From Actinomycetota bacterium (GTDB taxonomy: Bacteria; Actinomycetota; Rubrobacteria; Rubrobacterales; Rubrobacteraceae): a stretch of DNA of 41,589 nucleotides. Below are positions 16,459-37,208 of the stretch, in pieces; the stretch's first letter is position 1, and every line of letters starts with the position of its first letter. The notes beneath the pieces are model-generated. The model searched no databases. It was not told the DNA's origin and saw nothing but the letters and a program-made list of their open reading frames with translations. The stretch lies in contig SIRX01000119.1 of the NCBI GenBank assembly GCA_004563715.1, forward strand, positions 1 through 41,589. The letters are read 5' to 3'. A program made the position numbers and the translations under genes.

Positions 16459-16470
16459 ATGAGGAGAAGC

Positions 16471-17250: not shown

Positions 17251-17280
17251 AAGACAGATCTGAAAGACGTATCTGAAAAC
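17246..17280 (+). repeat. Three 13-bp tandem repeats after the DUF1445 gene
   Basis: TCTGAAAGAC begins at 17246 and 17259, and a degenerate third copy TCTGAAAAC begins at 17272, giving an exact 13-base period. The core CTGAAAGAC is the reverse complement of the GTCTTTCAG found at 1914 and 10055. The first copy overlaps the stop codon of the DUF1445 gene. Confidence 0.6.
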
Positions 17281-17297
17281 CCGGATTTTTGTCCGGG
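17280..17297 (+). terminator. Weak hairpin between the DUF1445 and NRAMP genes
   Basis: CCCGGA (17280-17285) pairs with TCCGGG (17292-17297) around a TTTTTG loop. There is no following T-run, so termination would be inefficient at best. A TATAGT at 17336-17341 could be the -10 of a second promoter, but no good -35 was seen. Confidence 0.35.
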
Positions 17298-17389
17298 CGG
17301 CCATTTACCGGGGGCGTACGGGATGCTACTTTACGTATAGTGATCTAGGACATCATGCAGGCAGAGGGGAGGCCAGGGAGCGTGGGCGC

Positions 17390-20586: not shown

Positions 20587-22129
20587 CGGCCGGCTAGACC
20601 CCGTAACCCTCTCGGTGCTGGCGAGCGCTCTCTCCGGGGCGGCGGAGGAGATGGGGGCGGTACTCATCCGGGGCGCCTACTCCTCCAACATCAAGGAGCG
20701 GCGCGACTGCTCCACCGCCCTCTTCGACGCCCGGGGCCAGATGGTGGCCCAGGCCGAGCACATCCCGGTACACCTGGGAGCCATGCCCGAGGCGGTGGCG
20801 GCGGTCATGGAGCGCGACCCCGAGCCCGGTGACGTTTACGCCCTCAACGACCCCTACTCCGGCGGGACGCACCTGCCGGACATAACCCTCGTCTCGCCGG
20901 TGGCGCACGAGGAGGAGATTATCGGGTACGCCGTTACGCGGGCGCACCACTCGGACGTGGGCGGCATGAGCCCCGGCTCCATGCCGTCGAACTCGCGCGA
21001 GATCTACCAGGAGGGCATCATCATCCCGCCCGTCCGGCTCGTCCACGAGGGCGAGTACGTGGACGAGATACTCGACCTGATCCTCGCCAACGTCCGCACG
21101 CCCGACCTGCGGCGCGGCGACCTGCGGGCCCAGATCGCGGCCAACAACCTGGCCCAGACCCGCCTCTCCGAGCTGATCGAGCGTCGGGGCCGGGATACCG
21201 TGCTCACCGCTTTCGAGGAGGTCATCGCCTACACCGAGCGCCGCACCCGCGAGGCGATCCGGGAGCTGCCCGACGGCGAGTACAGTGCAGAGAGTGAGAT
21301 CGAGGGCGACGGCGCCAGCGACGAGGACATACCCACAAAGGTCACCGCTACCATCGAAGGTGACGAGATCCGGCTAGACTTCTCCGGTACCTCCGGCGCC
21401 GTGGCGGGCAACGTGAACTGCCCGCTGGCCGTCACCCGCTCCGCCTGCTACTTCGCCCTGCGGGTCCTGCTCCCCGGGGACGTGCCGGCCAACGCCGGCA
21501 CCTACGCCCCCCTCGACATCCACGCCCCCGAGGGCAGCCTGGTAAACGCCGAGAGCCCCTCGGCGGTCGTGGCGGGCAACGTCGAGACCAGCCAGCGGGT
21601 CGCGGACACCATCATCGCCGCCTTCTCGGAGGCCACGGACCTCGTCGCGGGCGGTCAGGGCACGATGAACAACCTCATAATCGGCGGGTCCGGCAACGGA
21701 GGCTGGACCTACTACGAAACCATCGGCGGCGGCCAGGGCGCGAGCAAGAAGGCCGACGGCCCCTCCGGCGTCCACGTCGGCACGTCCAACACCCTCAACA
21801 CCCCGATAGAGGCCCTGGAGCTGGAGTACCCGATGCGCGTCGAGCGTTACGAGCTGCGCTACGGCTCCGGCGGCGGGGGCGCCCACCGCGGCGGCGACGG
21901 CATCGTCCGCTCCGTGCGCGTCCTGGAGCCCGCCAGCCTCTCGCTTCTCACCGACCGCCGGCGCCACGGGCCGCACGGCGTGGGCGGCGGAGAACCCGGC
22001 GCACCCGGCCGCAACCTCCTGAACGACGAGGAGCTGCCACCGAAGGCCAGCCGGGAACTGGAGGAGGGCGACGTGGTCACGGTCGAGACGCCCGGCGGCG
22101 GCGGGTACGGCAGCCCTGGAGGGGGGTAA
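20579..22129 (+). CDS. hyuB: Hydantoinase/oxoprolinase B subunit
   Basis: This 516-residue protein is the partner of HyuA. It contains 'VTLSVLASALSGAAEEMGAVLIRGAYS', 'ERRDCSTALFDARGQMVAQAEHIPVHLG', 'NDPYSGGTHLPDITL' and 'AVVAGNVETSQRVADTI' (quoted in parts). The C-terminus is the typical Gly-rich 'TVETPGGGGYGSPGGG'. The B subunit forms the heteromeric complex that carries out ATP-dependent ring opening or carboxylation. Its ATG lies 8 bases inside hyuA, and the order matches the usual hyuAB arrangement. It is the last gene of this plus-strand operon; the next gene converges on it 30 bases away. Confidence 0.88.
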   Translation: MSNGRLDPVTLSVLASALSGAAEEMGAVLIRGAYSSNIKERRDCSTALFDARGQMVAQAEHIPVHLGAMPEAVAAVMERDPEPGDVYALNDPYSGGTHLPDITLVSPVAHEEEIIGYAVTRAHHSDVGGMSPGSMPSNSREIYQEGIIIPPVRLVHEGEYVDEILDLILANVRTPDLRRGDLRAQIAANNLAQTRLSELIERRGRDTVLTAFEEVIAYTERRTREAIRELPDGEYSAESEIEGDGASDEDIPTKVTATIEGDEIRLDFSGTSGAVAGNVNCPLAVTRSACYFALRVLLPGDVPANAGTYAPLDIHAPEGSLVNAESPSAVVAGNVETSQRVADTIIAAFSEATDLVAGGQGTMNNLIIGGSGNGGWTYYETIGGGQGASKKADGPSGVHVGTSNTLNTPIEALELEYPMRVERYELRYGSGGGGAHRGGDGIVRSVRVLEPASLSLLTDRRRHGPHGVGGGEPGAPGRNLLNDEELPPKASRELEEGDVVTVETPGGGGYGSPGGG

Positions 22130-24012: not shown

Positions 24013-25122
24013 CTACACGACCACCTCCGCCATCTCATCTATGAGGGCGCGCTGGAACTCGACCACCCGCGGGTCTGGCTGCTGGGCCGCGAAGAGCTCC
24101 TCGAAGGGATCCTCCACGGCCGTGCGCGCGCCGCTCAGTTCCTCGACGACCGCGAGCCCGCAGAAGGGCACGGTGGACTCAGCGTAGCCGCCCTCGTGCA
24201 CGGCGACGAGGCGTCCGCCGCAGAGGACTTCTGCGGCCTCCAACAAGAGGCGGGTCATCTGGCGGTAGGACTCGCCGTAGAGCATCTGGCGCGCCAGGGG
24301 GTCGGCGGCGTTGGCGTCCAGGCCGCTGGCGATAATGACCAGCTCCGGCCCGAAGCGCTCCAGGGCGGGCACCACGATGCGCCGCAGCGCGTACAGGTAG
24401 GTCTCGTGGCCGCTGCCGGGCGGCAGCGGCACGTTTGCGTTGTAGCCTGCTCCCGCCCCCGCGCCGCGCTCCTCCACGTTCCCGCTGCCGGGCGGGAAGC
24501 AGTTCTCCTGATGCATGGAGATCGTGAGCACGTCCGGCCGCTCGTAGTAGATGGACTGCGTCCCGTTGCCGTGGTGGACATCCCAGTCGAGCACGGCGAC
24601 CTTCTCCACCCCGGATCCGGCCCTCGCGGCCTCTATGGCTATGGGGATGTTGGCCAGCAGGCAGAAGCCCATCGCCGAGTCGGGCAGGCAGTGGTGGCCC
24701 GGGGGCCGGGAGAGCGAGTAGGCGTTGCGGTAGATGCCGGAGAGCACGTCGGAGACGGCGCGTTTGGCGAGCCCGGCGGAGAGCTTGGCGATCTCGTAGC
24801 TGCCCGCTCCGAAGGGGGCGAAGAGCCCCTCCTCACCGCCGCCAGCGTCGCTGGCGGCCTTGAAGCGCTCCAGGTACTCTCGGGTGTGCACCCGCAGCAG
24901 GTCCTCCTCGGTGGCCTCCGGGGCCGAGAGCTGGGCGACCTGGTTGCCCAGGCCCGAGACGTCCAGGAGGGCCTTGAAGCGGCGCTTGGTCTCGGGCGAC
25001 TCGCCGTGTCCGCCGCCGGCCGGGGGCTGCAGCCAGCCGCCTACTGGCATGACCAGCACCGCCTCGCCGGTGGTGTGCCAGAGGCACCGCTCGTCGTGGT
25101 AGAAAGCCGTATCGTAGTCCAT
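24013..25122 (-). CDS. Class II histone deacetylase-like / acetylpolyamine amidohydrolase
   Basis: The 369-residue cytoplasmic zinc hydrolase has every arginase-deacetylase fold motif. These are RPPGHH (His143/His144), 'MGFCLLANIPIA', the zinc ligands Asp181 and His183 in 'DWDVHHGNGTQ', Asp269 in 'SGLDANAADPL', and 'HEGGY' near the C-terminus. Bacterial members remove acetyl groups from acetylpolyamines or other N-acyl amines, or from proteins. The ATG at 25122 follows GAGAGGAG. It lies 30 bases downstream of the PLP decarboxylase gene on the same strand, which suggests joint action on amines. Confidence 0.87.
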   Translation of the reverse strand: MDYDTAFYHDERCLWHTTGEAVLVMPVGGWLQPPAGGGHGESPETKRRFKALLDVSGLGNQVAQLSAPEATEEDLLRVHTREYLERFKAASDAGGGEEGLFAPFGAGSYEIAKLSAGLAKRAVSDVLSGIYRNAYSLSRPPGHHCLPDSAMGFCLLANIPIAIEAARAGSGVEKVAVLDWDVHHGNGTQSIYYERPDVLTISMHQENCFPPGSGNVEERGAGAGAGYNANVPLPPGSGHETYLYALRRIVVPALERFGPELVIIASGLDANAADPLARQMLYGESYRQMTRLLLEAAEVLCGGRLVAVHEGGYAESTVPFCGLAVVEELSGARTAVEDPFEELFAAQQPDPRVVEFQRALIDEMAEVVV

Positions 25123-26722: not shown

Positions 26723-27648
26723 TCAGCTCGAACTCCGCTCGGTTTGCGTCCCGGTATCCTCCTTTGCCGCCGTGGCCTGGACGGCGGCCACGCCCTCGCC
26801 GATACCGGCGTAGACCGCGGGCCTGCGCGACCGCATAGCGACCGCGACCACGAAACCTACGACGCCCGCCCCGAGCACCAGGACCGGGAACACCACGGCC
26901 AGCGGGTTCAGAGGAGCACCCGGCGTCGAGGTCAACAGTACGTTGAAGTTGAGCACGATCAGGACCAGGACGACCGCCAGCACGAGGCCCGCAACGAGCG
27001 GGGCGATCAGGCGCGCGAAGCCTCCCTCGTTGCGCGCGTCGTTCCGGAAGAAAGCGACGACCGAGAACGACAGCAGCGTCAGCAGCGCCACTACGCCCAA
27101 AGCGCCGGTATTGGTGAGCCAGGTAAAGAGCGTGAGGATCGGGTCCAGGCCGAGGACGGCGAAGACCGTGACGACCACGAAGGCCAGGGCGGTCTGCGTC
27201 AGAGACGCCGCGTAAGGGGCCTGCTTCCGCGGATGCACCTGTCCCAAGACGCGGGGCAGGACCCGCTCCCGGCCGAGCGAGAAGATGTACCGGGCCACCG
27301 CGTTGTGGAAGGACAGCAGCGCGGCGAACAGGCTCGTGGCGAAGAAGAGCACTCCTACCTCCGCGAACCACGCGCCGAGCCTCTCGGCCCCCGCGACGAA
27401 CAGCACGGTCGTGGGGTCCGGCGCGCCTCCCGACGTGAAGCCCGCCTCCGCCAGCCGGTCCGGGTCCGTGATCGTAGCGGGACCGGCCGCCACGGCGAGG
27501 AGCCAGCTAGAGACGGCGTAGAAGACGGAGATGGTGCCCGCCGCGATGTAGCGACGATAAAGAACACGATCGAGGGAACACCCATGGCCCCCCGGTGCAG
27601 ACGCTCTCCGGTTTCCGCCGTTTGCGCGGAAGTCTGTCCCTGGCTCAT
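26723..27648 (-). pseudogene. APC-family amino-acid permease with a large internal deletion and frameshift
   Basis: The first 32 codons from the ATG at 27648 encode the usual APC N-terminus ('RLHRGAMGVPSIVFFIVA'). Near 27553-27565 the sequence jumps to what is normally residue about 230-240 of the family ('RRYIAAGTISVFYAVSSW') in a different frame. It then continues for about 275 residues to the normal C-terminus, through 'FHNAVARYIFSLGRERVLP' and several membrane helices. A full-length relative has about 480-510 residues, so roughly 200 residues (helices 1-6) are gone. The gene is probably dead unless the C-terminal half is made from an internal start at 27493. Confidence 0.78.
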
Positions 27649-27726: not shown

Positions 27727-28995
27727 TCAATCCCGAGCCCTGACAAGACCGCACCAGTCCCTCACGAACAGCCCGAGCACCTGCGCGGTCTCGACGACCG
27801 AGCTTAGAGCTACGCGCTCGTCTATGCCGTGGATGTTCTCCGCACGCGGCCCGAAGCAGACGGCCGGTATCCCCGCCCGCACGAAGTGCCTCGCGTCCGT
27901 GGTGGCGGTCGTGGCCTCCAGGCCGGGGCGCTCCCCGTGCAGCCGGGCGTACGCCTCGGAGAGCGCGTGGACCACCGGCTCGTCTTCGTCCACCACCGAC
28001 CCCTCGCAGGCGAACCCGTCGTAGCGCACGCGCGGCGGGTTCCCGGCGAGCCGGGGCGAGGCTTCCGCTGCTTCGGCGACCGCCTCTTCGACCAGGGCGC
28101 GCATCTCCTCCGGGGACTGCCCCGGGTTGAGTCCGATGCGGCACGAGAGGGTGCAGGTCGCCGCGACGGTCGAGGGCCAGTCGCCGCCGGAGATCACGCC
28201 GGGGTTCAAATTGATGGGGTGCTCGAACGCGTCGAAGGGGGGCGGCGGGTCCTCGTTGAGCCGCTTCTCCAGCTTGCGGAGCGCCGCGAGCACCTCGTAG
28301 GCGGCCTCGATAGCGTTGAAGCCGAGCCGGCTGGCGCGGGCCGCGTGCGCCGGAACGCCGGAGATCTCGACGTGGAACCAAAGCACGCCGACCTGGGCCA
28401 CGGTCAGGTGGTCGGGATGCGGCTCGGGGATGACGCACGCCTCGGCGCGAGCCCCGTCCAGCAGGCACTGCAACGCCCCGTGGCCGGTGCACTCTTCCTC
28501 TACGACTGACTGGAGCTGCACCGGGGCCGCCGGGGCGTACCCGGCGCGCTTGAGCGCCCGCACCGCGCCGGTCATGGCGGCGAGGCCGGCCTTCATGTCC
28601 CCGGCCCCGCGCCCGTAGATCCAGTCGCCGGCGCGCACCGCCTCGTAGGGCGAGTGCGACCACAGCTCCCCGGCGGCCGGCGGCACGACGTCGATGTGGC
28701 CGTTGAGGATCAGGGACTGTCCCCCCTCGCCGCCCGCCGGCCAGTCGGCGACGAGGTTGCGCTTGCCTTTTACGTCCCAGGAGAACGGGGAAGCACCGTC
28801 GGCGGCGCGCAGGGCTCCGGCGTCGAGCGGGACGCTGCGCGGCGCGAGGCCGCAGTCGGCGAAGGCTTCCTCCATTATCTGCTGGCCCGCCTCCTCGTCG
28901 CCGAGGACGGTCGGGGCTTCGACGAGGCGGACGAGCACTCTTTCCATCCACCCCTGCTCGGCGGCGACCGCGGCGAGGACTGTTTCGTCGTTCAT
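27727..28995 (-). CDS. M20-family (ArgE/DapE-type) deacylase / peptidase
   Basis: This 422-residue cytoplasmic zinc amidohydrolase has the M20 motifs: 'LILNGHIDVVP' (zinc His and Asp), 'GRGAGDMKAGLAAM' (bridging Asp), and 'QSVVEEECTGHGAL' (catalytic Glu-Glu). The lid domain contains 'VPAHAARASRLGFNAIEA'. Members hydrolyse N-acyl amino acids, dipeptides or carbamoyl compounds. The ATG at 28995 overlaps the aldehyde dehydrogenase stop as ATGA, so it is the last cistron of the coupled operon. In this setting it could remove a gamma-glutamyl or other acyl group from a pathway intermediate, which is inference. Confidence 0.85.
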   Translation of the reverse strand: MNDETVLAAVAAEQGWMERVLVRLVEAPTVLGDEEAGQQIMEEAFADCGLAPRSVPLDAGALRAADGASPFSWDVKGKRNLVADWPAGGEGGQSLILNGHIDVVPPAAGELWSHSPYEAVRAGDWIYGRGAGDMKAGLAAMTGAVRALKRAGYAPAAPVQLQSVVEEECTGHGALQCLLDGARAEACVIPEPHPDHLTVAQVGVLWFHVEISGVPAHAARASRLGFNAIEAAYEVLAALRKLEKRLNEDPPPPFDAFEHPINLNPGVISGGDWPSTVAATCTLSCRIGLNPGQSPEEMRALVEEAVAEAAEASPRLAGNPPRVRYDGFACEGSVVDEDEPVVHALSEAYARLHGERPGLEATTATTDARHFVRAGIPAVCFGPRAENIHGIDERVALSSVVETAQVLGLFVRDWCGLVRARD

Positions 28996-30458
28996 CCGGT
29001 GCTGCCTTCGAGGATCTGGAGGGCCTTCAGGTCGGAGTAGAAGTCCAGGGCGTAGTCGCCACCCTCGCGCCCGATGCCGGAGATGCCCGTGCCGCCGAAC
29101 GGGGCGGTCAGGTCGCGCACCAGGAAGGTGTTGACCCAGACCACGCCCGCGCGCACCCGGCGGCCCACGCGGTCGGCCCGGCCGAGGGAGCCCGTGTAGA
29201 CGATGCCCGAGAGGCCGTACTCGGTGGAGTTGGCGAGGGCGACCGCCTCGTCCTCGCCGGCGAAGGTCTGGAAGGTGAGGACGGGGCCGAAGACCTCCTT
29301 CTGGACGATCTCGGCGTCGTTGGAGTTCGGCTTGATGAGGGTGGGCTCGTAGAAGAGCGAGCCCACGGGCGAGCAGCGGCCGCCGCGCACGATCCTGTGT
29401 CCCTCGGCGCGGGCGCGCTCGACGAAGCCCTCGACGCGCTCCAGGTGGTCGGGGTGGATGAGCGGCGAGAGGGTGGTCGAGTCCTCGCGCGGGTCGCCGG
29501 GGACGTGCTCGTCGGCGAAGCGGTGAAACCTCTCCAGAAAGTCGTCGGCGACGGACTCCTGCACGAGCAACCGCGTGCCGGCGAGGCAGACCTGCCCGGC
29601 GTCGTCGTACTGGCCGGCCGCTTTGCGCGCGGCGGCGTCCAGGTCGGCGTCCTCGAAGACTATCAAGGGTCCCTTGCCGCCGAGCTCGGCGGTGAACGGC
29701 ACCAGGTTCTTGGCCGCAGACACCCCGATCCGGCGCCCCGTCTCCGGCGAGCCCGTGAACGAGACGCGCCGCAAGAGCGGGTGCGCGACCAGTGCAGCTC
29801 CGGCCTCCTCCCCGACCCCCTGGACGACGTTGAACACGCCCGGCGGGAAGCCGGCCCCGGCCACGAGGTCGGCGAGCAGCGAGCAGGAGAGGGGCGACCA
29901 CTCGGCGGGCTTGAGGACGACGGTACAGCCGGCGGCCAGCGCAGGAGCGGTCTTCCAGGTCGAGAGCATGAACGGGGCGTTCCACGGCGTGATCACGGCC
30001 GCCGAGCCGGCGGGCATCCGCTGCACCCGGTTCCACGTCCCCTGCGAGCGCCAGTCGCGCTCCTCGTAGGCGGTCGCCAGGTCCGCGTAGGAGCGGTAGT
30101 TGCGCGCCCCGCGCGAGATCACGCGCGCCCGCAAGGAGCGCAGCAGCATCGCCATGTCCATACACTCGACGGCGGCCAGCCTCTCGACGTTGGCGTCGAT
30201 AAGGCCGGCGAGCCGGTGCAGGTAGGGCGCGCGGCCGGCCGGTCCGAGGTCGGCCCACGCCGGGAAGGCGTCGCGGGCGGCGCGCACCGCCGCGTCCACC
30301 TCGGCCTCGCCGGCGCGCGAGACCTCGGCGATGACCTCGCCCGTGATCGGGGAAATGTCCTCGAAGCGCCGGTCGCTCGCCACCCGCTCCCCCCCGATGA
30401 AGTGGTCGGGTGAGACCTCGATGCCCGCGACCCGGATGCGCCCGGCGATAGCGGTCAT
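28992..30458 (-). CDS. Aldehyde dehydrogenase (hydroxymuconic-semialdehyde dehydrogenase-like)
   Basis: A 488-residue NAD(P)-dependent aldehyde dehydrogenase. 'VITPWNAPFMLSTWK' and 'VLKPAEWSPLS' bind the cofactor. 'FTAELGGKGP' carries the general-base Glu, and Cys291 in 'DDAGQVCLAGTR' is the nucleophile. The opening 'HFIGGERVASDRRFEDISPITGE' (in parts) and the neighbouring ring-cleavage dioxygenase favour the HpaE/XylG branch, which oxidises semialdehydes from meta cleavage. It overlaps both neighbours by 4 bases (ATGA at each end), showing tight translational coupling. Confidence 0.88.
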   Translation of the reverse strand: MTAIAGRIRVAGIEVSPDHFIGGERVASDRRFEDISPITGEVIAEVSRAGEAEVDAAVRAARDAFPAWADLGPAGRAPYLHRLAGLIDANVERLAAVECMDMAMLLRSLRARVISRGARNYRSYADLATAYEERDWRSQGTWNRVQRMPAGSAAVITPWNAPFMLSTWKTAPALAAGCTVVLKPAEWSPLSCSLLADLVAGAGFPPGVFNVVQGVGEEAGAALVAHPLLRRVSFTGSPETGRRIGVSAAKNLVPFTAELGGKGPLIVFEDADLDAAARKAAGQYDDAGQVCLAGTRLLVQESVADDFLERFHRFADEHVPGDPREDSTTLSPLIHPDHLERVEGFVERARAEGHRIVRGGRCSPVGSLFYEPTLIKPNSNDAEIVQKEVFGPVLTFQTFAGEDEAVALANSTEYGLSGIVYTGSLGRADRVGRRVRAGVVWVNTFLVRDLTAPFGGTGISGIGREGGDYALDFYSDLKALQILEGSTG

Positions 30459-31255
30459 ACGAGCTCCTTGACGGTCTGGAGGTCGTCCACGGTGTAGCCG
30501 AACGTGAAGCGGTAGCCCCGGTCGATCTTCACGGGGGCGAGCGTGTCGTGCTCCTCGCCGGGGGCCGGGTACAGAGTAAGTGTGGCAGGACCGGCGAATA
30601 CTCTGGATATCGCGCGGTCGCGGCTCACGGAGCGGACGAGCTCGTGCACCTGCGGGTCGTCGTGGCGGCCGGCGGCGAGGCGCGGGAAGTGGCGCACGTT
30701 GACGATGGGCGGGGCGTTGTGGCGCGGGCCGTCCTCGGCCTCGCCCTCGATGGTGAGGGTCATGTCGGCGATGGCGCGGCCGCGCGCGGAGCAGGTCGCG
30801 CCGTGGCGGCCGCCGGGCCGCAGTCCCGGGTCTGCCGGCAACTCCAGGCCGAAGGTGCGGGTCATCCAGACCGAGCCCAGCTTCTTGGGGAAGCCCTGGA
30901 TCCAACCTCGAGCCAGCGCGAAGTCCTGGTCCACCCAGATAAAGGGGCAGGTCGTCACCTCCTCGCCGTCGAGCAAGGCGTTGACCACGACGAAGAACTC
31001 CCGGTAGTGGGACCGGATCGGGTCTACCAGCTCGTCCCCGCCCTCGGAGCACGACTGCCAGTCGGCGAACACCGCGGCGCAGCGGCTGGGGTCGGGGTGC
31101 GGGTCTAACCCGTCGGGCAATACGGCGCGGACGGCGTCGGGGTCGGCCCAGTAGTCCACGACGAGGAAGTCGCCGACGTAGTGCCACGGGGGCGGCGGGA
31201 CGAGGCTGGCCCGGCCGGTCCGGGTGCGGGGGATGGAGTAGCCGCGCAGGCTCAT
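30455..31255 (-). CDS. Acetoacetate decarboxylase-family protein
   Basis: The 266-residue protein contains the acetoacetate decarboxylase core. 'WIQGFPKKLGSVWMTRTFG' includes the paired lysines that form the Schiff base in the clostridial enzyme, and 'DQDFALARG' precedes them. Relatives include true acetoacetate decarboxylases and aldolase-dehydratases acting on other oxo acids. In an operon with extradiol cleavage, aldehyde dehydrogenase and FAH-family genes, decarboxylation of an oxalocrotonate-like intermediate is a reasonable hypothesis. The start and stop both overlap adjacent genes by 4 bases. Confidence 0.8.
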   Translation of the reverse strand: MSLRGYSIPRTRTGRASLVPPPPWHYVGDFLVVDYWADPDAVRAVLPDGLDPHPDPSRCAAVFADWQSCSEGGDELVDPIRSHYREFFVVVNALLDGEEVTTCPFIWVDQDFALARGWIQGFPKKLGSVWMTRTFGLELPADPGLRPGGRHGATCSARGRAIADMTLTIEGEAEDGPRHNAPPIVNVRHFPRLAAGRHDDPQVHELVRSVSRDRAISRVFAGPATLTLYPAPGEEHDTLAPVKIDRGYRFTFGYTVDDLQTVKELV

Positions 31256-32175
31256 TTGTGGACCTCCTCTGGTAACGGCTGACCGAGCATCTCCAGGCTC
31301 TCCCGCTCGGAGGCGACGGCCGCCTCGTCGAAGCGGAAGTAGGAGCGGGGCGGCAGAGGACCCCAGGTGTTCGAGGAGAAGCGGTTGTCCGGCCAGCGGC
31401 GCGGCTCGTGGTCGGCCTCCAGCTGCTCCATGTCGCAGTAGAGCTCGACGAAGCACTCCTCCTCGACGATCCGCACGTAGGAGGCGATGTTGCCCCCGAT
31501 GCCGTGCCGCACCGGCCCCCAGCCGAGCCAGCGCCCGTGCCTCCCGAGGTGATCGAGGGCGACCCGCATCTGGCCGATGTCCACGACGTCGAAGGCGAGA
31601 TGGTGGAAGTGGGAGTAGCCCTTGTCCACGAGCGCCATGACGTGGTGGTCGCCGTTTACGTGGAACCACACGCCGCCGGCGCCGAGCCAGTCTGTCAGGC
31701 CCATGCCGAGCCCGCGCGTGTAGAACTCGACACCGGCCTGCATCTCGCCGGTAAGGAAGTTGACGTGCCCGAGCTTGCGGGGATGGCCGACGACCTGGTC
31801 GGTGGCCGCCCGCGCGTGTGGAACCCACCGCTCTCCGGGCTCCCGGTAGGGCATCACGAGCACCCCGTTGTCCTCCGGGTCTGAGAGACGCAGGCCGTCG
31901 TCTCGCTCCTCGTAGGCGATGCCGAGCCCATCGAAGTGGCGCCTCGCGTCGTCGAGCGAGCAGGAGCGGCGCAGTTCGTAGGCGACGTGCTCCAGGCCGG
32001 ACGCTTCGGCGGCGACCAACTCTAGAGAAAAAGGCTCGTCGTCGCAGGCGAGGCGGGCGCGGTGCTCGTCACGTTCCCGCTCGACGAGGCCGAACTGGAG
32101 GCGCCAGCGGCGGGCGGCGCCTTCCACGTCGGTGACGCGCAGGCTGACGTGGTCGATGCGGCGGAGGGAGATCAC
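31252..32175 (-). CDS. Type I extradiol ring-cleavage dioxygenase (VOC family)
   Basis: A 307-residue two-domain VOC protein with a full extradiol active site. Iron ligands are His137 ('KLGHVNF'), His191 or 192 ('HFHHLAFDV') and Glu244 ('FVELYCDME'). The catalytic second-sphere set is His177/178 ('NGDHHVM'), His224 and Tyr233 in 'GPVRHGIGGNIASYV'. This matches the catechol 2,3-dioxygenase/BphC family, which opens catechols next to the hydroxyls using Fe(II) and O2. Both ends overlap neighbours by 4 bases. The intact catalytic residues argue against a non-enzymatic VOC role. Confidence 0.88.
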   Translation of the reverse strand: MISLRRIDHVSLRVTDVEGAARRWRLQFGLVERERDEHRARLACDDEPFSLELVAAEASGLEHVAYELRRSCSLDDARRHFDGLGIAYEERDDGLRLSDPEDNGVLVMPYREPGERWVPHARAATDQVVGHPRKLGHVNFLTGEMQAGVEFYTRGLGMGLTDWLGAGGVWFHVNGDHHVMALVDKGYSHFHHLAFDVVDIGQMRVALDHLGRHGRWLGWGPVRHGIGGNIASYVRIVEEECFVELYCDMEQLEADHEPRRWPDNRFSSNTWGPLPPRSYFRFDEAAVASERESLEMLGQPLPEEVHK

Positions 32176-33416
32176 GCCGCCTCCACCCGCACCGGCATGC
32201 GCTTGATACCGTTGAAGAAGTTGGAGCGCAGGCGGTCCACCCGGCCGGCCAGCTCGACGGACCCCAGGCGTGGGATCAGCTCCTCGAACGCCACGCGGAC
32301 CTCCATGCGGGCGAGGTGGGCGCCGAGGCAGAAGTGCTTGCCCCCGGGGCCGAAGGTCATGTGCCCCTTGTGTCGGCTCGGCTCGCGGCCGACGTCGAAG
32401 GTGTCCGGGGCCTCGAAGAAAGCCTCGTCCCGGTTGCCCGAGGTGAACCAGGTTGTCACCTTGGCCCCGGCCGGTATCTTCGTCCCGGCCAGCCCGGTCT
32501 CCTGCGTCGTGGTGCGCCGGAAGTGGTGCACGGGGGTGGCCCAGCGGAGCATCTCCTCGGCGGCCGAGGCGTAGAGCGCGGGGTCACGGCGCAGCCGTTC
32601 GAGCTGGTCCGGGTTCTCGATGAGGGCGAGGAGGCCGTGGGTGATGGTGTGCCGGGTGGTCTCGTTGCCGGCGGTGGCCAGCAGCACGAAGTTCACGTCG
32701 TACTCGCGCTGGGTGAGCCCGCCGAAGGCGAGCTGGGTCACGATGTCGTCCTTGGGGTTGCGCCGCCGCTCCTCGGCGAGCGCGCGCCCGATCCTGAACA
32801 GCTCCAGCGAGGCCGGGCTGGAGAACGGCAAGAGGCGGTGCTCGGGCTTCTCCGGGGGCCGGGCGAACTCCGGGTCCTGGCCCCCGAGCAGGTGGTCCCC
32901 GAGCTCGATGATGTGGCGGCGCTCGTCCTGGGGGATGCCCAGGATGTCCGCGAAGACCTGCATCGGGATCTCCGAGGAGATCTCGCGCACGAAGTCGAAC
33001 TCGCCCTTGGGCAGCGCCTCGTCGATCACCCGGCGGGCGACCTCGCGCACCTGGTCCTCCCAGTCCTTGACGGCCCGGGGGGCGAAGCGGCCCTTGATGA
33101 GACGCCGGATCTCGTCGTGGCGCGGCGGGTCGAGGTCTATCATGGACTTGCGGGCCTCGATCTGGTCCGGCTCCAGGTCTTCGAGCGAGGTGCCCCCGAT
33201 CTCCGAGGAGTAGATGTCCCAGCGGCGGTGCACCTCCCGGATGTCCTCGTAGCGGCTTATGACCCAGAAGCCGGGGCCGTCGGGCTCGGGGTTGAAGAAC
33301 ACGGGCGCCTCGCGCCGGAGGGTACGGAACCACCCGTGCGGTACCCGCTCCACGAAGGCGTCGGGGTTGGAGAGGTCTATCTCCTCCAGCGAAACGGTCT
33401 CTCTGGTCTCGGTCAT
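32172..33416 (-). CDS. Cytochrome P450
   Basis: This 414-residue soluble bacterial P450 has the I-helix oxygen-binding motif 'LLATAGNETTRHT', the K-helix ExxR in 'EEMLRW', and the heme loop 'FGPGGKHFCLGAHLARME' with Cys363 as the iron ligand. Sequence style is that of actinobacterial CYPs acting on terpenoids, sterols or cyclic amines. The ATG at 33416 follows AGGAGG, which overlaps the stop of the preceding gene. No ferredoxin or ferredoxin reductase is encoded nearby, so the electron donors must come from elsewhere. In this operon it may hydroxylate the amine-bearing substrate before ring cleavage. Confidence 0.92.
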   Translation of the reverse strand: MTETRETVSLEEIDLSNPDAFVERVPHGWFRTLRREAPVFFNPEPDGPGFWVISRYEDIREVHRRWDIYSSEIGGTSLEDLEPDQIEARKSMIDLDPPRHDEIRRLIKGRFAPRAVKDWEDQVREVARRVIDEALPKGEFDFVREISSEIPMQVFADILGIPQDERRHIIELGDHLLGGQDPEFARPPEKPEHRLLPFSSPASLELFRIGRALAEERRRNPKDDIVTQLAFGGLTQREYDVNFVLLATAGNETTRHTITHGLLALIENPDQLERLRRDPALYASAAEEMLRWATPVHHFRRTTTQETGLAGTKIPAGAKVTTWFTSGNRDEAFFEAPDTFDVGREPSRHKGHMTFGPGGKHFCLGAHLARMEVRVAFEELIPRLGSVELAGRVDRLRSNFFNGIKRMPVRVEAA

Positions 33417-33427
33417 CTTCGCTCCTC

Positions 33428-35488
33428 CTAGAGGTGGTGGAGGTACTCGGCGATCTCCCAGTCCGAGACCCACGTCCGGTGCCGCTCGGCCTCGAACCGC
33501 TTCATCGTGAGGAAGGTATCCACGATCTGGGGCCCCATCGCCTCCCGCAACACCTCGTCGGCCTCCAGCGCGTCCAGCGCCGCCTCCAGGGTGGCGGGCA
33601 GTTGTCCGCCGGCGGCGTCTTCCGGGAGGGTGTAGGCGTCGCCGCCGACCGGCGGGCCGAGCGGCAGCCTCTCGCGCAGGCCGTGCAGTCCGGCGAAGAG
33701 GATGGCGGCGGTCGCCAGGTACGGGTTCGCGCTCCCGTCGCCCACGCGCACCTCGGCCCTCGTGGCCCCGCCCCGCTCGGGCGGGATGCGCACGAACGCC
33801 GTCCGGTTGTCCCAGCCCCAGTTGGCGTGGGTGGGAGCCAGCGAGTCCGGCACGAGCCGCCGGTAGGCGTTGACGGTCGGGTTCAGGAAGGCCGTGAGGC
33901 CGCGGGCGTGAGCGAGTATACCGCCGACGAAGTGGCGCATCTTCCCGGAGACGCCGTCCGCGTCGGCGTCGTCAGCGAAGGCGTTCTCACCGTCCTGGCC
34001 TAGCGAGAAGTGGAAGTGGAAGCCGGAGCCGCCCTGGTCGTTGAACGGCTTGCCCATGAACGTGGCGATGAGGCCGTGCATGGCGGCCACGTCCTTGACG
34101 GCGCCCTTGAGGCGGAAGGCCCGGTCGGCGGCGGTCAGGGCGTCGGCGTGGTGAAGGTTGATCTCGTACTGCGAGTTCATGTACTCGTGGTTGGCCGCGA
34201 AGGTGCCCATCCCGAGGCCGGAGAGGTCCTCGGCGATCTTGCGCACGATGCCGCGCGGGTCGGCCTGCGGGCCTACCGTGTAGACCATGCTCAGGTTGTC
34301 CACGTAGCGCCGCACGCCGTTGACCGCTGCGGGGTCGCGCTCGCAGAGGAAGAACTCCAGCTCCGGGCCCACGACCGGCGCCAGCCCGAGCTCCTCGCAG
34401 GCGGCCACGGCGCGGCGTACCGCGCCCCGCGGGTCGGCGGGTGGTGCGTGATCCCCAACCGGGCGCAGGTCTGCGATGCAGCACGCCAGGCCCGGCTCCC
34501 ACGGGACCATCGTCACCGTGGAGAGGTCGGGGAAGGCCACGAGGTCGGGGTAGCCCTCCTCGCCTCCCACGACGGGGGTGTGGCGCAGGTCGGTGCCCAT
34601 TACCGCCGAGCAGAAGGCGAGCCCGTGCTCCAGGGCGCGGTCGAACTCGCCGATGGGCACGTCCTTGCCCCGCACCACGCCGTGCAGGTCCGGGTAGATC
34701 ACGCGTACGGAGGTAACCGAGCCGTCGGACAGCTCGGGGGGCTTCTCTACGGGTTTCTCCTGTTCGATCATTGCATCTTCCTTCCCGCCGGTCGCACCGG
34801 CTGCTCTTCCTTCGCGGTGGACTTCCACGCTGGCCGCGAACGCGTCGAAGAAGCGGTAGGCCGCTTCCCTGGAGGCCCTCTCACGCTCCGGGGGTCCGCC
34901 GAGCAGCTCCGCGCCGTCTTCTATGCCGAGCGCTGACAGACGCTCGGTGTCCATCTCCGCCCACCGGGAGACGATCTCCACGGTGCTCTCGGGATGGAAC
35001 TGCACCCCGAGGTGCGGACCGAACCGGAACGCCTGCACGGCGTCTGTGGTGCGTGCAATCTCCTCGGCGCCGGGCGGCGTCGTAAACCGCTCGTAGTGCC
35101 ACTCCAGCCACGGGCCGGGCGGCACGGTCTCCGGGTCATCGGTCTCTATCTCGCGCCATCCCAGCTCCGGCTGGGGCGAAACCTCCACCCGCCCGCCGAG
35201 CACGGCGGAGAGCACCTCCCCCCCGAAGCACAGCCCGAGTACCGGGACGTCTTTCTCGACCGCGGCCCGTATCAAGTCGAGCTCCTGTACCACCGAAGGC
35301 TCGTGTGTGTCGTTTGGCCCGTAAGGGGACCCTAGCGACGCGACAAAGGAGTATTTTTCCGGGTCGGGGGCGGGCAACCCGTTGTACGAGTGGTTCACTT
35401 CGTATGGTAGACCCCGCTCGTCCAGCCACTCGGCGAGCAACCCGGGCGGCGTGTTCTCTTCGTGCTGGCGGATCAGGACCGGCTTCAA
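33428..35488 (-). CDS. Fusion protein: class I glutamine amidotransferase domain + glutamine synthetase-like domain
   Basis: A single 686-residue frame joins two enzymes normally made separately. Residues 1 to about 205 form a class I amidotransferase with nucleophile Cys87 ('GLCFGGE'), His165 and Glu167 ('GVQFHPEST'). From about 250 to the end is a type III/PuuA-like glutamine synthetase. It carries 'YPDLHGVVRGKDVP', 'GPELEFFLCE', 'NHEYMNSQYEINL', 'GGSGFHFHFSLG' and 'GDGSANPYLATAAIL'. Separate GS-like/amidotransferase pairs make and hydrolyse gamma-glutamyl amines in putrescine (PuuA/PuuD) and aniline (AtdA1/AtdA2) catabolism. The TTG start overlaps the FAH stop (TTGA). Met240 follows GGAAGGAAG, so the GS part may also be made separately. 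Confidence 0.88.
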   Translation of the reverse strand: MKPVLIRQHEENTPPGLLAEWLDERGLPYEVNHSYNGLPAPDPEKYSFVASLGSPYGPNDTHEPSVVQELDLIRAAVEKDVPVLGLCFGGEVLSAVLGGRVEVSPQPELGWREIETDDPETVPPGPWLEWHYERFTTPPGAEEIARTTDAVQAFRFGPHLGVQFHPESTVEIVSRWAEMDTERLSALGIEDGAELLGGPPERERASREAAYRFFDAFAASVEVHREGRAAGATGGKEDAMIEQEKPVEKPPELSDGSVTSVRVIYPDLHGVVRGKDVPIGEFDRALEHGLAFCSAVMGTDLRHTPVVGGEEGYPDLVAFPDLSTVTMVPWEPGLACCIADLRPVGDHAPPADPRGAVRRAVAACEELGLAPVVGPELEFFLCERDPAAVNGVRRYVDNLSMVYTVGPQADPRGIVRKIAEDLSGLGMGTFAANHEYMNSQYEINLHHADALTAADRAFRLKGAVKDVAAMHGLIATFMGKPFNDQGGSGFHFHFSLGQDGENAFADDADADGVSGKMRHFVGGILAHARGLTAFLNPTVNAYRRLVPDSLAPTHANWGWDNRTAFVRIPPERGGATRAEVRVGDGSANPYLATAAILFAGLHGLRERLPLGPPVGGDAYTLPEDAAGGQLPATLEAALDALEADEVLREAMGPQIVDTFLTMKRFEAERHRTWVSDWEIAEYLHHL
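34771..34786 (-). promoter_or_regulatory. Internal ribosome site and ATG inside the amidotransferase-GS fusion
   Basis: On the minus strand GGGAAGGAAG (34786-34777) lies 5 bases before an in-frame ATG (34771-34769, Met240). That Met begins MIEQEKPVEKPPELSDG, just where a stand-alone GS-like protein of this type would start. The region upstream is a low-complexity linker rich in Gly and Ala. It looks like the start of a formerly separate gene. Confidence 0.5.
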
Positions 35489-36360
35489 CCGCCCGTCCTT
35501 CCTGCCTCTACCATCTTCTCAGCCTCTTCCTCGGAGACGGCCAGCGCGACGTGCAGCGTGTTGGCCGAGGTCTCGGGCTGCTCGCCCGGCCCCGACAGGT
35601 CCACCTCCCACTCCTCGACGGTGTTGCTGAGGCAGCCGATGCCGTCTATCTCGACCTCCACCACGTCTCCCGGCTGCATGGGCCGGGAGTTGGCCGGCGT
35701 GCCGGTCAGGAGCACGTCGCCGGGCTCCAGCGAGATCAGACGGCACACGTCCGCGAGCTGGTACGCCACGCCGAACAGTAGGTCGTCCGAGCCACCCTCC
35801 TGCACGACCTCGCCGTTGAGGTACGTCCGAAGGGTGAACGCCTCCGGGTCGAACTCCGAGGCGGGCACCACCTCCGGCCCGAGCGGCAGGAAGCCGTCCT
35901 GGCCCTTGACGCGCAGCATCGAGCCCCGGTCCGCGTGCCGGAAGTCATGCAACCCCACGTCGTTGGCGCACGTGTAGCCGGCCACGTAGTCGAGCGCCTC
36001 CTCCTCCGGCACGCCCTTCATGCGCCGCCCGACAACGACGGCCAGCTCCCCCTCGTAGTTGAGGAACCGCGTCCCCGCCGGACGCCGCACCGTACCCCGG
36101 TGCCCGTTCAGCGCCGTCGGGGGCTTCAGGAAGTACGAGGGCTGCGCCGGCGCCTTCGCGGCGTACTCCTCCACGCGGCTCCGGTAGGTCAGGTGGACCG
36201 CGAGGATCTTGGTCGGCTCGACCGGCGCGAGGTAATGCGCCTCCGCCTCGGGCAACCGCTCCCCCGACTCCAGCACGACCTCATCGCCCTCCCGCCAGCC
36301 CCACACCGGTGCGCCTCCGTACAGCACACGCAGCGCCCGACCATCCCCGATAGCTCCCAT
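35485..36360 (-). CDS. Fumarylacetoacetate hydrolase (FAH)-family protein, HpaG-like isomerase/decarboxylase/hydrolase
   Basis: The 291-residue protein has the FAH catalytic core. 'FLNYEGELAVVVG' provides two metal-binding Glu residues, 'ANDVGLHDFRH' an Asp, and 'VKGQDGFLPLGPEVV' the substrate/metal loop. 'GDVLLTGTPANSRPMQPGDVVEVEIDGIG' (in parts) closes the beta-roll. Family members hydrolyse acylpyruvates or decarboxylate and isomerise meta-cleavage products. The ATG at 36360 is preferred to the GTG at 36369 because of ribosome-site spacing. It is the first gene of the coupled operon; its stop overlaps the next start (TTGA). Confidence 0.87.
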   Translation of the reverse strand: MGAIGDGRALRVLYGGAPVWGWREGDEVVLESGERLPEAEAHYLAPVEPTKILAVHLTYRSRVEEYAAKAPAQPSYFLKPPTALNGHRGTVRRPAGTRFLNYEGELAVVVGRRMKGVPEEEALDYVAGYTCANDVGLHDFRHADRGSMLRVKGQDGFLPLGPEVVPASEFDPEAFTLRTYLNGEVVQEGGSDDLLFGVAYQLADVCRLISLEPGDVLLTGTPANSRPMQPGDVVEVEIDGIGCLSNTVEEWEVDLSGPGEQPETSANTLHVALAVSEEEAEKMVEAGRTGG

Positions 36361-36392
36361 AACAGACACCCCACAGTCCGATAAACCAGTTT

Positions 36393-36409
36393 ATGGATAC
36401 ATTATCCAT
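36393..36409. promoter_or_regulatory. Operator copy 1 (17-bp palindrome) over the catabolic-operon promoter
   Basis: ATGGATA-CAT-TATCCAT is a perfect 7-base-arm palindrome with a 3-base centre. It covers the -10 element of the minus-strand promoter. The same motif recurs 52 bases away at 36445-36461. Size and symmetry fit the dimeric GntR/FadR regulator encoded next door. Confidence 0.65.
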
Positions 36410-36427
36410 TTCTGCCTGCGCTGTCAA
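36399..36427 (-). promoter_or_regulatory. Promoter of the minus-strand catabolic operon
   Basis: Reading on the minus strand, TTGACA (36427-36422) is followed after 17 bases by TAATGT (36404-36399). The -35 is consensus and the -10 is moderate and lies inside operator copy 1. Transcription would begin about 30 bases before the FAH-family ATG. Confidence 0.6.
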
Positions 36428-36444
36428 GCGGTGTGGGGTGTTTG

Positions 36445-36461
36445 TTGAATAATGTATCCAA
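36445..36461. promoter_or_regulatory. Operator copy 2 (17-bp palindrome) over the regulator promoter
   Basis: TTGAATA-ATG-TATCCAA is the same element as copy 1 read on the other strand, with one mismatch between its arms. It covers the -35 box and part of the spacer of the regulator's own promoter, which suggests autoregulation. Confidence 0.65.
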
Positions 36462-36473
36462 ACGGCCTATGAT
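36445..36473 (+). promoter_or_regulatory. Promoter of the GntR regulator gene, probably leaderless
   Basis: TTGAAT (36445-36450) and TATGAT (36468-36473) are 17 bases apart. Only 6 bases separate the -10 box from the ATG at 36480, so transcription should start at or next to the start codon. No ribosome site is visible, in agreement with a leaderless message. Confidence 0.65.
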
Positions 36474-36479
36474 CGCGGC

Positions 36480-37208
36480 ATGACCCTCCCCTCTGGACAG
36501 CGGAAGGATGAGGACCACATCCGGGTAGATTCCGTCGTGGACCTCGCCTACGGGCGCATCCGGGACCTGGTCCTCAGCGGCGAGCTGGCGCCGGGGGCGC
36601 GGCTCGGGCAGGTGGAGCTGGCGGAGCGGTTCGGGATCTCGCGCACGCCGGTCCGCGAGGCGTTGCGGCGGCTGGCGGGCGAGGGGCTCGTGGACCCGCT
36701 CTCCAACCGGGGCTTCCGGGTTGCGGATCTCGGCCTCGACGCGGTCATGCGGCGTCTGGAGGTGCGGTCCATCCTGGAGCCGGGCATCGCCCGGCTGGCG
36801 GCGCGGCGCCGGAGCGAGCGCGACGTCGAGCGGTTACGGGGCGCGATCTCACGCGAGGAGCGGGCGCGGGACGGGATCGAGGCCCACGACGCCAGCCGCG
36901 ACTTCCACGTCGCGCTCGCGCGCGCCACCGGCAACGAGGAGATCGTGCGCGTCCTGGAGTCGCTGTGGCTCGTGGAGGTGGACCGGCGCCTCCTCGCCCG
37001 GCGCTCCGCCGAGTCGGACTGGCCGTCCGTGGACATCCGGGAGCACCGGGAGATAGCGACCGCCGTGGAAGAGGGCCGCGCCGAGGACGCCGGGCGGCTG
37101 ATGGAGGAGCACGTCAGCGGGGCCGTGCGCCACTGGGAACCCGAGTGGCGAGCCACCACGGACCGTCTGGACGGGGAGTCCGGACCCGGCGTCGCCGCGG
37201 GCCGGTGA
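36480..37208 (+). CDS. GntR-family transcriptional regulator, FadR/FCD subfamily
   Basis: The 242-residue protein has an N-terminal winged helix (residues about 18-80). Its recognition helix is 'LAERFGISRTPVREALRRLAGEGLV' (in parts), the GntR hallmark. A C-terminal all-helical FCD ligand domain follows, with 'DASRDFHVALARATGN' and 'REHREIATAVEEGRAEDAGRLMEEHV' (in parts), which carry the His and acidic residues that bind a metal and a carboxylate ligand. It is divergent from the catabolic operon, and a repeated palindrome lies in the 119-base gap. It is probably an autoregulated repressor released by a pathway substrate. Its stop is 2 bases from the convergent MFS gene. Confidence 0.9.
   Translation: MTLPSGQRKDEDHIRVDSVVDLAYGRIRDLVLSGELAPGARLGQVELAERFGISRTPVREALRRLAGEGLVDPLSNRGFRVADLGLDAVMRRLEVRSILEPGIARLAARRRSERDVERLRGAISREERARDGIEAHDASRDFHVALARATGNEEIVRVLESLWLVEVDRRLLARRSAESDWPSVDIREHREIATAVEEGRAEDAGRLMEEHVSGAVRHWEPEWRATTDRLDGESGPGVAAGR

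What the first reader, a model, noticed from the sequence alone, without database searches (positions are those of the whole stretch)
27727..37208. A coupled seven-gene operon that may define an undescribed gamma-glutamyl-amine / ring-cleavage pathway
Seen: FAH hydrolase, amidotransferase-GS fusion, P450, extradiol dioxygenase, acetoacetate-decarboxylase-like protein, aldehyde dehydrogenase and M20 deacylase are on one strand. Five of six junctions are 4-base stop/start overlaps, with a divergent GntR regulator. Known: GS-like plus amidotransferase pairs start aniline (AtdA1/A2) and putrescine (PuuA/PuuD) catabolism; P450 plus GS-like plus GntR genes occur in piperidine/morpholine degraders; extradiol, ALDH and FAH enzymes make up meta-cleavage pathways. 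Inference: an aromatic or cyclic amine is gamma-glutamylated, oxygenated by P450 in place of a Rieske dioxygenase, ring-opened and degraded. The exact combination is unfamiliar to me.
Basis: partly seen in the sequence, partly recalled or inferred. Interest (0 to 1): 0.85.

Follow-up and report, generated by a model that had tools for sequence, protein, structure and literature searches.

The report
Glutamyl-tagged aromatic amine ring-cleavage operon
A conserved bacterial operon appears to tag a tyramine-like amine with glutamate, open its aromatic ring with oxygen-using enzymes and recycle the pieces, a route that seems not to have been described but that is still a prediction from sequence.

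Summary
Seven same-strand genes (27727-36369, minus) have 4-base overlaps at 5 of 6 junctions and a divergent GntR gene with operator-like repeats. The cluster recurs in Rubrobacteraceae and Solirubrobacterales, and rearranged in other Thermoleophilia and Acidobacteriota. One correction: the amidotransferase-GS 'fusion' is local (21 of 23 loci keep two genes).

The GS-like enzyme has lost three ammonium-site residues. In Acidobacteriota a gamma-glutamyl-GABA-hydrolase-type gene stands in for the amidotransferase. The window's P450 clade shares no held locus with HpaB (4-hydroxyphenylacetate hydroxylase family), which takes its place in other clusters. The dioxygenase, ALDH and FAH proteins resemble HpaD, HpaE and HpaG. 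The acetoacetate-decarboxylase-like protein is of an aldolase type and may replace HpaH and HpaI, for which this genome gave no match.

Best reading: tyramine-type catabolism in which the gamma-glutamyl tag is kept through ring cleavage, ending in pyruvate plus gamma-glutamyl-4-aminobutanal, then gamma-glutamyl-GABA. Known modules, combined in a way I found in no paper. Substrate, P450 chemistry and aldolase step are inferred; I know of no assay of any of these proteins.

The parts
35485..36369 (-). FAH-family protein, HpaG-like isomerase/decarboxylase (294 aa from GTG 36369; ATG at 36360 also possible)
   Evidence: Pfam FAA_hydrolase 5e-59; NCBIfam best a general FAH-family model (257 bits), then HpaG-C-term 217 bits, cut-off 276; best solved relative HpaG 1gtt
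34770..35488 (-). class I glutamine-amidotransferase domain, predicted gamma-glutamyl-amide hydrolase
   Evidence: Pfam GATase 2.9e-10; Cys87/His165/Glu167 in 21 of 21 aligned loci
33428..34750 (-). GS-like gamma-glutamyl-amine ligase (GoaS type by residues); fused here to the GATase
   Evidence: Pfam Gln-synt_C 2.4e-104; ammonium-site residues replaced
32172..33416 (-). cytochrome P450, CYP125/124-like, predicted ring hydroxylase
   Evidence: best solved relative is the CYP125MRCA entry, 399 bits; heme Cys363 and the AGNET motif in 50 of 50 aligned loci
31252..32175 (-). type I extradiol dioxygenase (VOC superfamily), HpaD-like
   Evidence: best NCBIfam model HpaD, 96.6 bits against a 321 cut-off; H137, H192, E244 and Y233 invariant in 13 orthologs; their roles assigned by recall of HpaD structures
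30455..31255 (-). acetoacetate-decarboxylase-like protein, predicted hydratase/aldolase
   Evidence: closest solved relatives 4zbo, MppR (4jm3) and 5upb; K124 of GFPKK in 58 of 58 aligned loci
28992..30458 (-). aldehyde dehydrogenase, HpaE-like
   Evidence: best NCBIfam model HpaE, 512 bits against a 638 cut-off; aminobutyraldehyde dehydrogenase model 411 bits
27727..28995 (-). M20 ArgE/DapE-type deacylase, possible second amide hydrolase
   Evidence: PRK06837 453 bits, over its 376 cut-off; in 11 of 71 loci
36480..37208 (+). divergent GntR/FCD regulator
   Evidence: FCD 1.2e-22 and GntR 4.1e-18
36394..36408 (.). operator-like imperfect palindrome TGGATACATTATCCA next to the operon promoter
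   Evidence: exact in 9 of 16 divergent FAH/GntR intergenic regions, 9 of 10 in the Rubrobacter type
36446..36460 (.). second operator-like site (1 mismatch)
36422..36427 (-). TTGACA, -35-like box upstream of the first operator
   Evidence: TTGAC in 10 of 10 aligned intergenic regions
26723..27648 (-). broken APC amino-acid/amine permease (N-terminal piece joined out of frame to the C-terminal half)
   Evidence: full-length in relatives L038 and L048
25153..26658 (-). group II PLP decarboxylase, possible source of the amine
   Evidence: Pyridoxal_deC 8e-62; best solved relatives DOPA decarboxylase 7xin 197.6 bits and the PLP decarboxylase 4obu 197.2 bits; in 18 of 71 loci
24013..25122 (-). histone-deacetylase-fold amidohydrolase, loosely associated
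   Evidence: Hist_deacetyl 9.5e-82; in 7 of 71 loci

Best explanation
The operon degrades a phenethylamine-type aromatic amine, most likely tyramine (inferred), as its gamma-glutamyl amide. (1) The GS-like ligase joins glutamate to the amine (inferred from the lost ammonium site). (2) The P450 hydroxylates the phenol to a catechol (inferred: it stands where HpaB stands in sister clusters). (3) The extradiol enzyme opens the ring as HpaD does. (4) The ALDH oxidises the semialdehyde as HpaE does. (5) The FAH protein isomerises and decarboxylates as HpaG does. (6) The ADC-like protein hydrates and splits the product, replacing HpaH and HpaI, giving pyruvate and gamma-glutamyl-4-aminobutanal. This follows from Hpa atom mapping (recalled): homoprotocatechuate gives succinic semialdehyde, so a 2-aminoethyl side chain gives 4-aminobutanal. 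(7) An ALDH gives gamma-glutamyl-GABA. (8) The amidotransferase (or the C26 enzyme, or M20) releases glutamate and GABA, which the genome's GABA transaminase can use. The tag would keep the aminoaldehyde from cyclising, as in the Puu putrescine route. GntR is the likely repressor. Steps 1-8 are inferences from sequence; what is shown is gene content, conservation and residues.
For: EDO ortholog in 13 of 396 sampled genomes, 11 of them with the six core genes; in 71 compared EDO loci, Acidobacteriota included, 31 hold all six. GS ammonium-site residues replaced: C53 in 42 of 46, V162 in 46 of 46, L310 in 46 of 46, as papers report for amine ligases. A candidate gamma-glutamyl-amide hydrolase accompanies GS in 34 of 44 GS loci: GATase in 24, C26 in 10, never both; the C26 protein's best model is gamma-glutamyl-GABA hydrolase. 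EDO and ALDH match HpaD and HpaE best, FAH matches HpaG second in NCBIfam and first among solved structures; sister clusters carry an HpaB-1-type hydroxylase. The window-type P450 clade has 0 of 43 EDO-linked members with HpaB in the held locus; 20 of 26 P450-type genomes have no HpaB match, G000 included. HpaH and HpaI give no match in G000; ADC relatives are aldolase-type. GABA transaminase over cut-off in 12 of 13 genomes.
Against: I know of no measured activity for any member. The Hpa and Puu model scores lie below their curated cut-offs. The P450 is closest to the CYP125/124 group, which I recall as aliphatic hydroxylases. Five loci with HpaB also carry a P450 of another clade (L064, L074, L080, L111, L112), and 9 of 11 genomes of loci with HpaB but no P450 hold P450s of 44-53% identity elsewhere, so the two are not simply alternatives. 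Rieske oxygenases exist elsewhere in 9 of 13 operon genomes, G000 included, so another catechol-forming enzyme is not excluded. ADC is missing in 7 of 12 Acidobacteriota loci; 7 of 42 well-flanked EDO loci have no GS of 38% or more. Ten of 44 GS loci show neither GATase nor C26, two of them short contigs. The PLP decarboxylase cannot be called tyrosine-specific. Only 3 independent pairs were available to test P450 against HpaB on the EDO tree, too few for significance. The HpaH and HpaI searches had no control over cut-off, and the HpaF search rang nowhere, so it is uninformative.
Confidence: 0.45

Rival explanations
1. An aniline-type pathway: an arylamine is gamma-glutamylated as by AtdA1, the P450 replaces the Rieske dioxygenase and frees a catechol, and the GATase only trims excess amide as AtdA2 does.
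For: GS-like plus GATase is the AtdA1/AtdA2 pair (passages of PMC11335346). NpaA1 (8wwu) is among the solved relatives of the GS domain. Rieske oxygenases exist elsewhere in 9 of 13 operon genomes.
Against: None of those Rieske oxygenases lies near the operon: other contigs, or about 60 kb or more away. HpaB-1-type hydroxylases in sister clusters and HpaE/HpaG-like enzymes point to a substituted phenol. A P450 monooxygenation does not by itself release the amine.
Confidence: 0.15
2. The substrate already is, or becomes, a catechol amine by demethylation: the P450 O-demethylates 3-methoxytyramine-like amines, or acts on a side chain, and dopamine-type amines enter directly.
For: The decarboxylase's top solved relative is a DOPA decarboxylase, by a margin of 0.4 bits. 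The P450 is CYP125-like, not a known phenol hydroxylase. Clusters with both P450 and HpaB exist.
Against: The window-type P450 clade is not found with HpaB in the held loci, which suggests that it makes the catechol itself.
Confidence: 0.17
3. A plain 4-hydroxyphenylacetate/homoprotocatechuate pathway in which GS, GATase and P450 are neighbours with unrelated duties.
For: HpaD/E/G-like core; of 8 well-flanked loci with HpaB, 5 have no GS of 38% or more (L081, L087, L092, L093, L108).
Against: GS and P450 lie together in 43 of 71 loci, in two phyla. In L044, L069, L071 and L073 GS lies between P450 and FAH. The genomes of those five loci hold GS-like genes of 46-53% identity elsewhere.
Confidence: 0.1
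4. A cyclic aliphatic amine pathway (piperidine/morpholine type), with P450 opening the ring and GS-like scavenging.
Against: An extradiol dioxygenase with its metal ligands conserved has no evident role there.
Confidence: 0.04

Closest known systems
Hpa homoprotocatechuate meta-cleavage pathway (HpaBCDEFGHI)
   Same: HpaD-, HpaE- and HpaG-like enzymes; HpaB-1-like hydroxylase in sister clusters
   Different: P450 instead of HpaB in the window type; ADC-like protein where HpaH/HpaI would be expected; amine ligase and amide hydrolase added; scores below the curated cut-offs
Puu gamma-glutamylputrescine pathway
   Same: gamma-glutamyl ligase, aldehyde dehydrogenase and gamma-glutamyl hydrolase logic; predicted common intermediate gamma-glutamyl-GABA
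   Different: no PuuB-type oxidase in the window operon; the aldehyde would come from aromatic ring cleavage; the genome has a separate Puu-like cluster (L123)
Aniline/1-naphthylamine systems AtdA1-A5, NpaA1-A5
   Same: GS-like GoaS ligase plus GATase next to a ring-oxidising enzyme
   Different: P450 instead of Rieske dioxygenase; the tag is predicted to stay on past ring cleavage; Hpa-type lower pathway
MppR / 4zbo / 5upb acetoacetate-decarboxylase-like enzymes
   Same: sequence family of the ADC-like protein
   Different: predicted to run in the splitting direction in catabolism, as a paper also suggests for S. solfataricus phenol degradation (PMC7820114, passages)

Membership tests
GoaS (glutamyl-organic-amine synthetase) | loss of GS Asp50 and of the Glu-flap Glu327 | tested here: met
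   C53 in 42 of 46 (V in 3, gap in 1) and L310 in 46 of 46; Tyr179 also replaced, by V162, 46 of 46; criteria from passages of PMC11335346 and PMC6529630
GoaS (glutamyl-organic-amine synthetase) | glutamylates an organic amine and not ammonium | not testable with these tools
   needs an enzyme assay
GoaS (glutamyl-organic-amine synthetase) | extra N-terminal '15th motif' | not tested
   motif named; no reference sequence was at hand
Hpa pathway | equivalog scores for HpaD, HpaE, HpaG | tested here: not met
   96.6 of 321, 512 of 638 and 217 of 276 bits
Hpa pathway | HpaH hydratase and HpaI aldolase in the genome | tested here: not met
   no match in G000; none over cut-off in 13 genomes; but no control genome was over cut-off either
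Hpa pathway | HpaF isomerase in the genome | tested here: inconclusive
   PF02962: 0 of 13 genomes, and no control rang
Puu pathway | PuuA-type ligase at equivalog level | tested here: not met
   GGputSyn 285.6 bits against 650
Puu pathway | PuuD-family gamma-glutamyl hydrolase in the cluster | tested here: inconclusive
   C26 protein in 12 of 71 loci, all 12 Acidobacteriota; PuuD model 108 bits against 266; the window has a GATase instead
AtdA aniline system | two-component Rieske dioxygenase in the cluster | tested here: not met
   PF00848 matches in 9 of 13 genomes, none near the operon; not searched in the other loci
Type I extradiol dioxygenase | 2-His-1-carboxylate metal site | tested here: met
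   H137, H192, E244 invariant in 13 orthologs; assignment to ligands recalled
ADC-like aldolase/dehydratase group | Schiff-base lysine region conserved | tested here: met
   K124 of GFPKK, 58 of 58; its role is recalled
ADC-like aldolase/dehydratase group | aldol/hydratase activity | not testable with these tools
   needs an assay

The most novel reading that the evidence does not exclude
A complete new catabolic route for tyramine-type amines in which the gamma-glutamyl tag stays on from amine to gamma-glutamyl-GABA, so that aromatic ring cleavage feeds straight into the Puu-type end of polyamine catabolism, with a P450 as catechol-forming hydroxylase and one ADC-like enzyme doing the work of HpaH and HpaI.
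Probability: 0.35. Interest if true: 0.75.

Novelty: new variant of a known kind. Interest (0 to 1): 0.62.

Why it matters
If true, it gives a substrate class and a step order to a gene cluster found in Rubrobacteraceae, several Thermoleophilia lineages and Acidobacteriota. It would link two textbook pathways (Hpa and Puu) through one intermediate, explain why an amine is glutamylated before ring opening, put a P450 in HpaB's place, and give the poorly understood acetoacetate-decarboxylase-like family a catabolic job. Each step can be assayed with purified enzymes.

Tried and rejected
Ordinary glutamine synthetase: rejected, because Asp50, Tyr179 and Glu327 are replaced. The GATase-GS fusion as a hallmark: rejected (2 of 23). 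HpaB elsewhere in the genome as the hydroxylase: rejected for G000 (no match). A Rieske oxygenase elsewhere as the hydroxylase: not excluded for G000, which has one; G109 and G338 have the P450 operon but no match to HpaB or to a Rieske oxygenase alpha subunit. A strict P450-or-HpaB rule: rejected, since five loci with HpaB also hold a P450, of another clade. The tree-based pair test of P450 against HpaB had 3 pairs and cannot reach significance. The AlphaFold model of the dioxygenase (mean pLDDT 65, most of residues 214-307 under 50) was not used, and no fold search was run. The plasmid search gave only hits under 60% identity. The decarboxylase's substrate could not be read from its relatives. 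Literature: ten searches of the open library, judged from listings, showed no paper on this cluster; subscription journals are largely not held.
Full report
What is there. On the minus strand of the window lie, in order, a FAH-family gene (36369-35485), a GATase-GS reading frame (35488-33428), a P450 (33416-32172), an extradiol dioxygenase (EDO, 32175-31252), an acetoacetate-decarboxylase-like gene (ADC, 31255-30455), an aldehyde dehydrogenase (30458-28992) and an M20 deacylase (28995-27727). Five of six junctions overlap by four bases; the GS-P450 junction has an 11-base gap with a GGAGG box. A GntR/FCD gene runs the other way from 36480. The gap between it and FAH holds two copies of a 15-base imperfect palindrome; one, TGGATACATTATCCA, is exact in 9 of the 16 loci with a divergent FAH/GntR gap under 900 bases, 9 of 10 in the Rubrobacter type. 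A nearby TTGAC box is kept in 10 of 10 aligned gaps, while most positions outside these sites vary. I read this as a self-regulated divergon with a repressor site on the promoter (inference).

Whose genome. The window's genome (3.47 Mb, 99% complete) shares a family with G026. G026's contig and that of Rubrobacter taiwanensis (L047) both have length 112,895, so the window most likely belongs to Rubrobacteraceae (inference).

Conservation. In an even sample of 396 genomes of the phylum, 13 (with the window's own) carry an extradiol ortholog at 57% identity or more; 10 of these are in the window's family. A named scan of species genomes gave 65 loci from Rubrobacter, Solirubrobacter, Conexibacter, Gaiella, other Thermoleophilia, Acidobacteriota and, weakly, one Rhodococcus. 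I dropped six loci held twice, two stretches of contigs already held and one short contig (L118), and added follow-up loci; of the 81 compared, 71 hold the dioxygenase under identity cut-offs that I set. Of these 71, truncated contigs included, 63 have the ALDH, 60 FAH, 60 ADC, 50 P450, 44 GS (43 together with P450), 40 an APC permease, 30 GntR, 26 GATase, 18 the PLP decarboxylase, 14 HpaB, 13 a ferredoxin reductase, 12 a C26 peptidase, 11 M20, 7 a Rieske-type ferredoxin, 7 a histone-deacetylase-fold gene. FAH, GS, P450, EDO, ADC and ALDH are all there in 31 of 71. Pfam was run on representatives only; the Rieske ferredoxins rest on similarity to one 110-residue stretch of L044. The ferredoxin reductase sits between FAH and GATase in the Solirubrobacterales-type loci that I mapped, and the Rieske ferredoxin before the P450 in L044, L069, L071 and L073; both would suit as P450 redox partners.

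The GS-like enzyme. Aligned to a solved GS, Asp50, Tyr179 and Glu327 fall on C53, V162 and L310. These are C in 42 of 46 (V in 3, a gap in 1), V in 46 of 46 and L in 46 of 46 aligned loci. Passages of two papers give such losses for amine ligases: NpaA1 and the GoaS class (PMC11335346), GlnA4 and PauA7 (PMC6529630). So it is an amine ligase by residue pattern, not by assay. The GATase keeps Cys87, His165 and Glu167 in 21 of 21. In the 12 Acidobacteriota loci no GATase was found and a C26 protein is present; where I looked (L096, L097, L098) it directly follows the P450. Its best NCBIfam model is gamma-glutamyl-GABA hydrolase, 108 bits against a cut-off of 266. GATase or C26 accompanies GS in 34 of 44 GS loci (24 and 10), the two never together; the ten with neither are L044, L054, L060, L061, L069, L071-L074 and L080, of which L054 and L061 are cut short upstream of GS. 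L065 has a diverged GS (41%) overlapping M20 by four bases, and L083, L088 and L091 have a diverged GS (40%) between dioxygenase and ADC.

The fusion. Of 24 loci with both GATase and GS, one has them on opposite strands; of the other 23, 21 keep separate frames and 2 (window, L062) read through. The window keeps the start-like ATG and a GGAAGG box of the separate gene.

The oxygenases. Of 42 dioxygenase loci with at least 7 kb on both sides, 31 have the P450 without HpaB, 7 HpaB without P450, 1 both (L080), 3 neither (L060, L084, L089). HpaB (one representative, L045) is of the 4-hydroxyphenylacetate 3-monooxygenase family HpaB-1 (416 bits, cut-off 480). In a tree of 55 P450s (under 36% identity or 70% coverage dropped) the window type and its sisters form one branch of 45 (SH-aLRT 99), of which 43 lie beside the dioxygenase and none has HpaB in its held locus. 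All five P450s that do have HpaB in the locus (L064, L074, L080, L111, L112) fall outside it, as does a second, 38% P450 of L102. Of 26 genomes with the P450-type operon, 20 have no HpaB match at all, five have only weak ones (29-39%), and one (that of L071) has a 75% one; G000 has none. Results against a clean swap: of the 11 genomes of loci with HpaB but no P450, 9 hold P450s of 44-53% identity elsewhere (L078's and L091's genomes only 29% and 34%); L111 and L112 show GS, P450 and HpaB in one cluster; the pair test on the dioxygenase tree is too small to be significant; and Rieske oxygenases occur elsewhere in 9 of 13 operon genomes, G000 included, though none near the operon. G109 and G338 have neither HpaB nor a Rieske oxygenase match, which leaves the P450 there among these three oxygenase types. 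My reading is that the window-type P450 forms the catechol and that the HpaB-linked P450s do another job.

The lower pathway. NCBIfam's best model is HpaD for the dioxygenase and HpaE for the ALDH; for FAH a general family model is first and HpaG second; none reaches its cut-off. Among solved structures FAH is closest to HpaG (1gtt). The dioxygenase's relation to solved HpaD is distant, with other dioxygenases scoring somewhat higher. The ADC-like protein's closest solved relatives are 4zbo, MppR (4jm3) and 5upb, which I recall as aldolase/dehydratase types. A paper on S. solfataricus phenol degradation suggests ADC-superfamily proteins as the aldolase of a meta pathway by the same MppR argument (PMC7820114, passages). 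HpaI gives no match in 10 of 13 operon genomes and HpaH none in 9 of 13; neither is found in 6 of 13, G000 among them; none is over cut-off, but neither is any of the 14 controls. The HpaF search rang nowhere, controls included, and says nothing. A GABA transaminase over cut-off is present in 12 of 13, against 3 of 14 control genomes.

Putting it together (inference). In the Hpa pathway the side chain of homoprotocatechuate ends in succinic semialdehyde (recalled). If the side chain is CH2CH2NH-gamma-glutamyl, the same steps end in gamma-glutamyl-4-aminobutanal, the Puu intermediate, and the next steps are ALDH and gamma-glutamyl-GABA hydrolysis. That one assumption accounts for the ligase, the hydrolase, the HpaB/D/E/G resemblances and the lack of HpaH/HpaI beside an ADC-like gene. 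It does not by itself fix tyramine against phenethylamine, methoxytyramine or dopamine. The PLP decarboxylase fits an aromatic amine but scores equally with a DOPA decarboxylase (7xin) and with 4obu, which I recall as a tryptophan decarboxylase.

Novelty. Ten literature searches listed no paper that, by title and abstract start, describes the cluster or gamma-glutamyl-tyramine catabolism; the library lacks most subscription journals. The modules are known, the combination appears not to be.

Noticed in passing
window 26723-27648: The APC permease is broken: a short N-terminal piece runs out of frame into the C-terminal half, while relatives L038 and L048 keep full-length frames of 511 and 518 aa. 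A real deletion or an assembly slip.
   Followed up: partly
L123 (G000:C118) 1315-5578: The same genome has a separate Puu-like cluster: GS-like (34% to the operon's), C26 peptidase (42% to the Acidobacteriota operon's C26), ALDH and SDR.
   Followed up: partly
G000:C12:9172-9762: A Rieske oxygenase alpha-subunit gene of the same genome, close to a place that weakly resembles the operon's ALDH DNA (L002).
   Followed up: no
L085 (CAMAWJ010000013.1): A record titled Bifidobacterium breve carries the cluster form of freshwater Actinobacteria and groups closely with a Thermoleophilia bin, L086; probably a mislabelled or mixed bin.
   Followed up: no
L107 4094-5937, L091 4324-7386: Beside HpaB-type clusters lie an acyl-CoA-dehydrogenase-like gene, an alpha/beta hydrolase and a protein without a Pfam match that looks to me (recall) like NicX.
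   Followed up: partly
L080 6566-7426: A LigB-type extradiol gene next to another P450, about 1 kb before the permease of this cluster.
   Followed up: no
window 15541-22129: Plus-strand genes for DUF5996, D-glutamate cyclase, Nramp and a hydantoinase B/oxoprolinase: possible 5-oxoproline metabolism.
   Followed up: no
L084 / L111 (same genome, G404): The dioxygenase (L084) and the GS-P450-ALDH-ADC-HpaB-FAH group (L111) lie on different contigs of one genome, so the pathway may be split there.
   Followed up: partly
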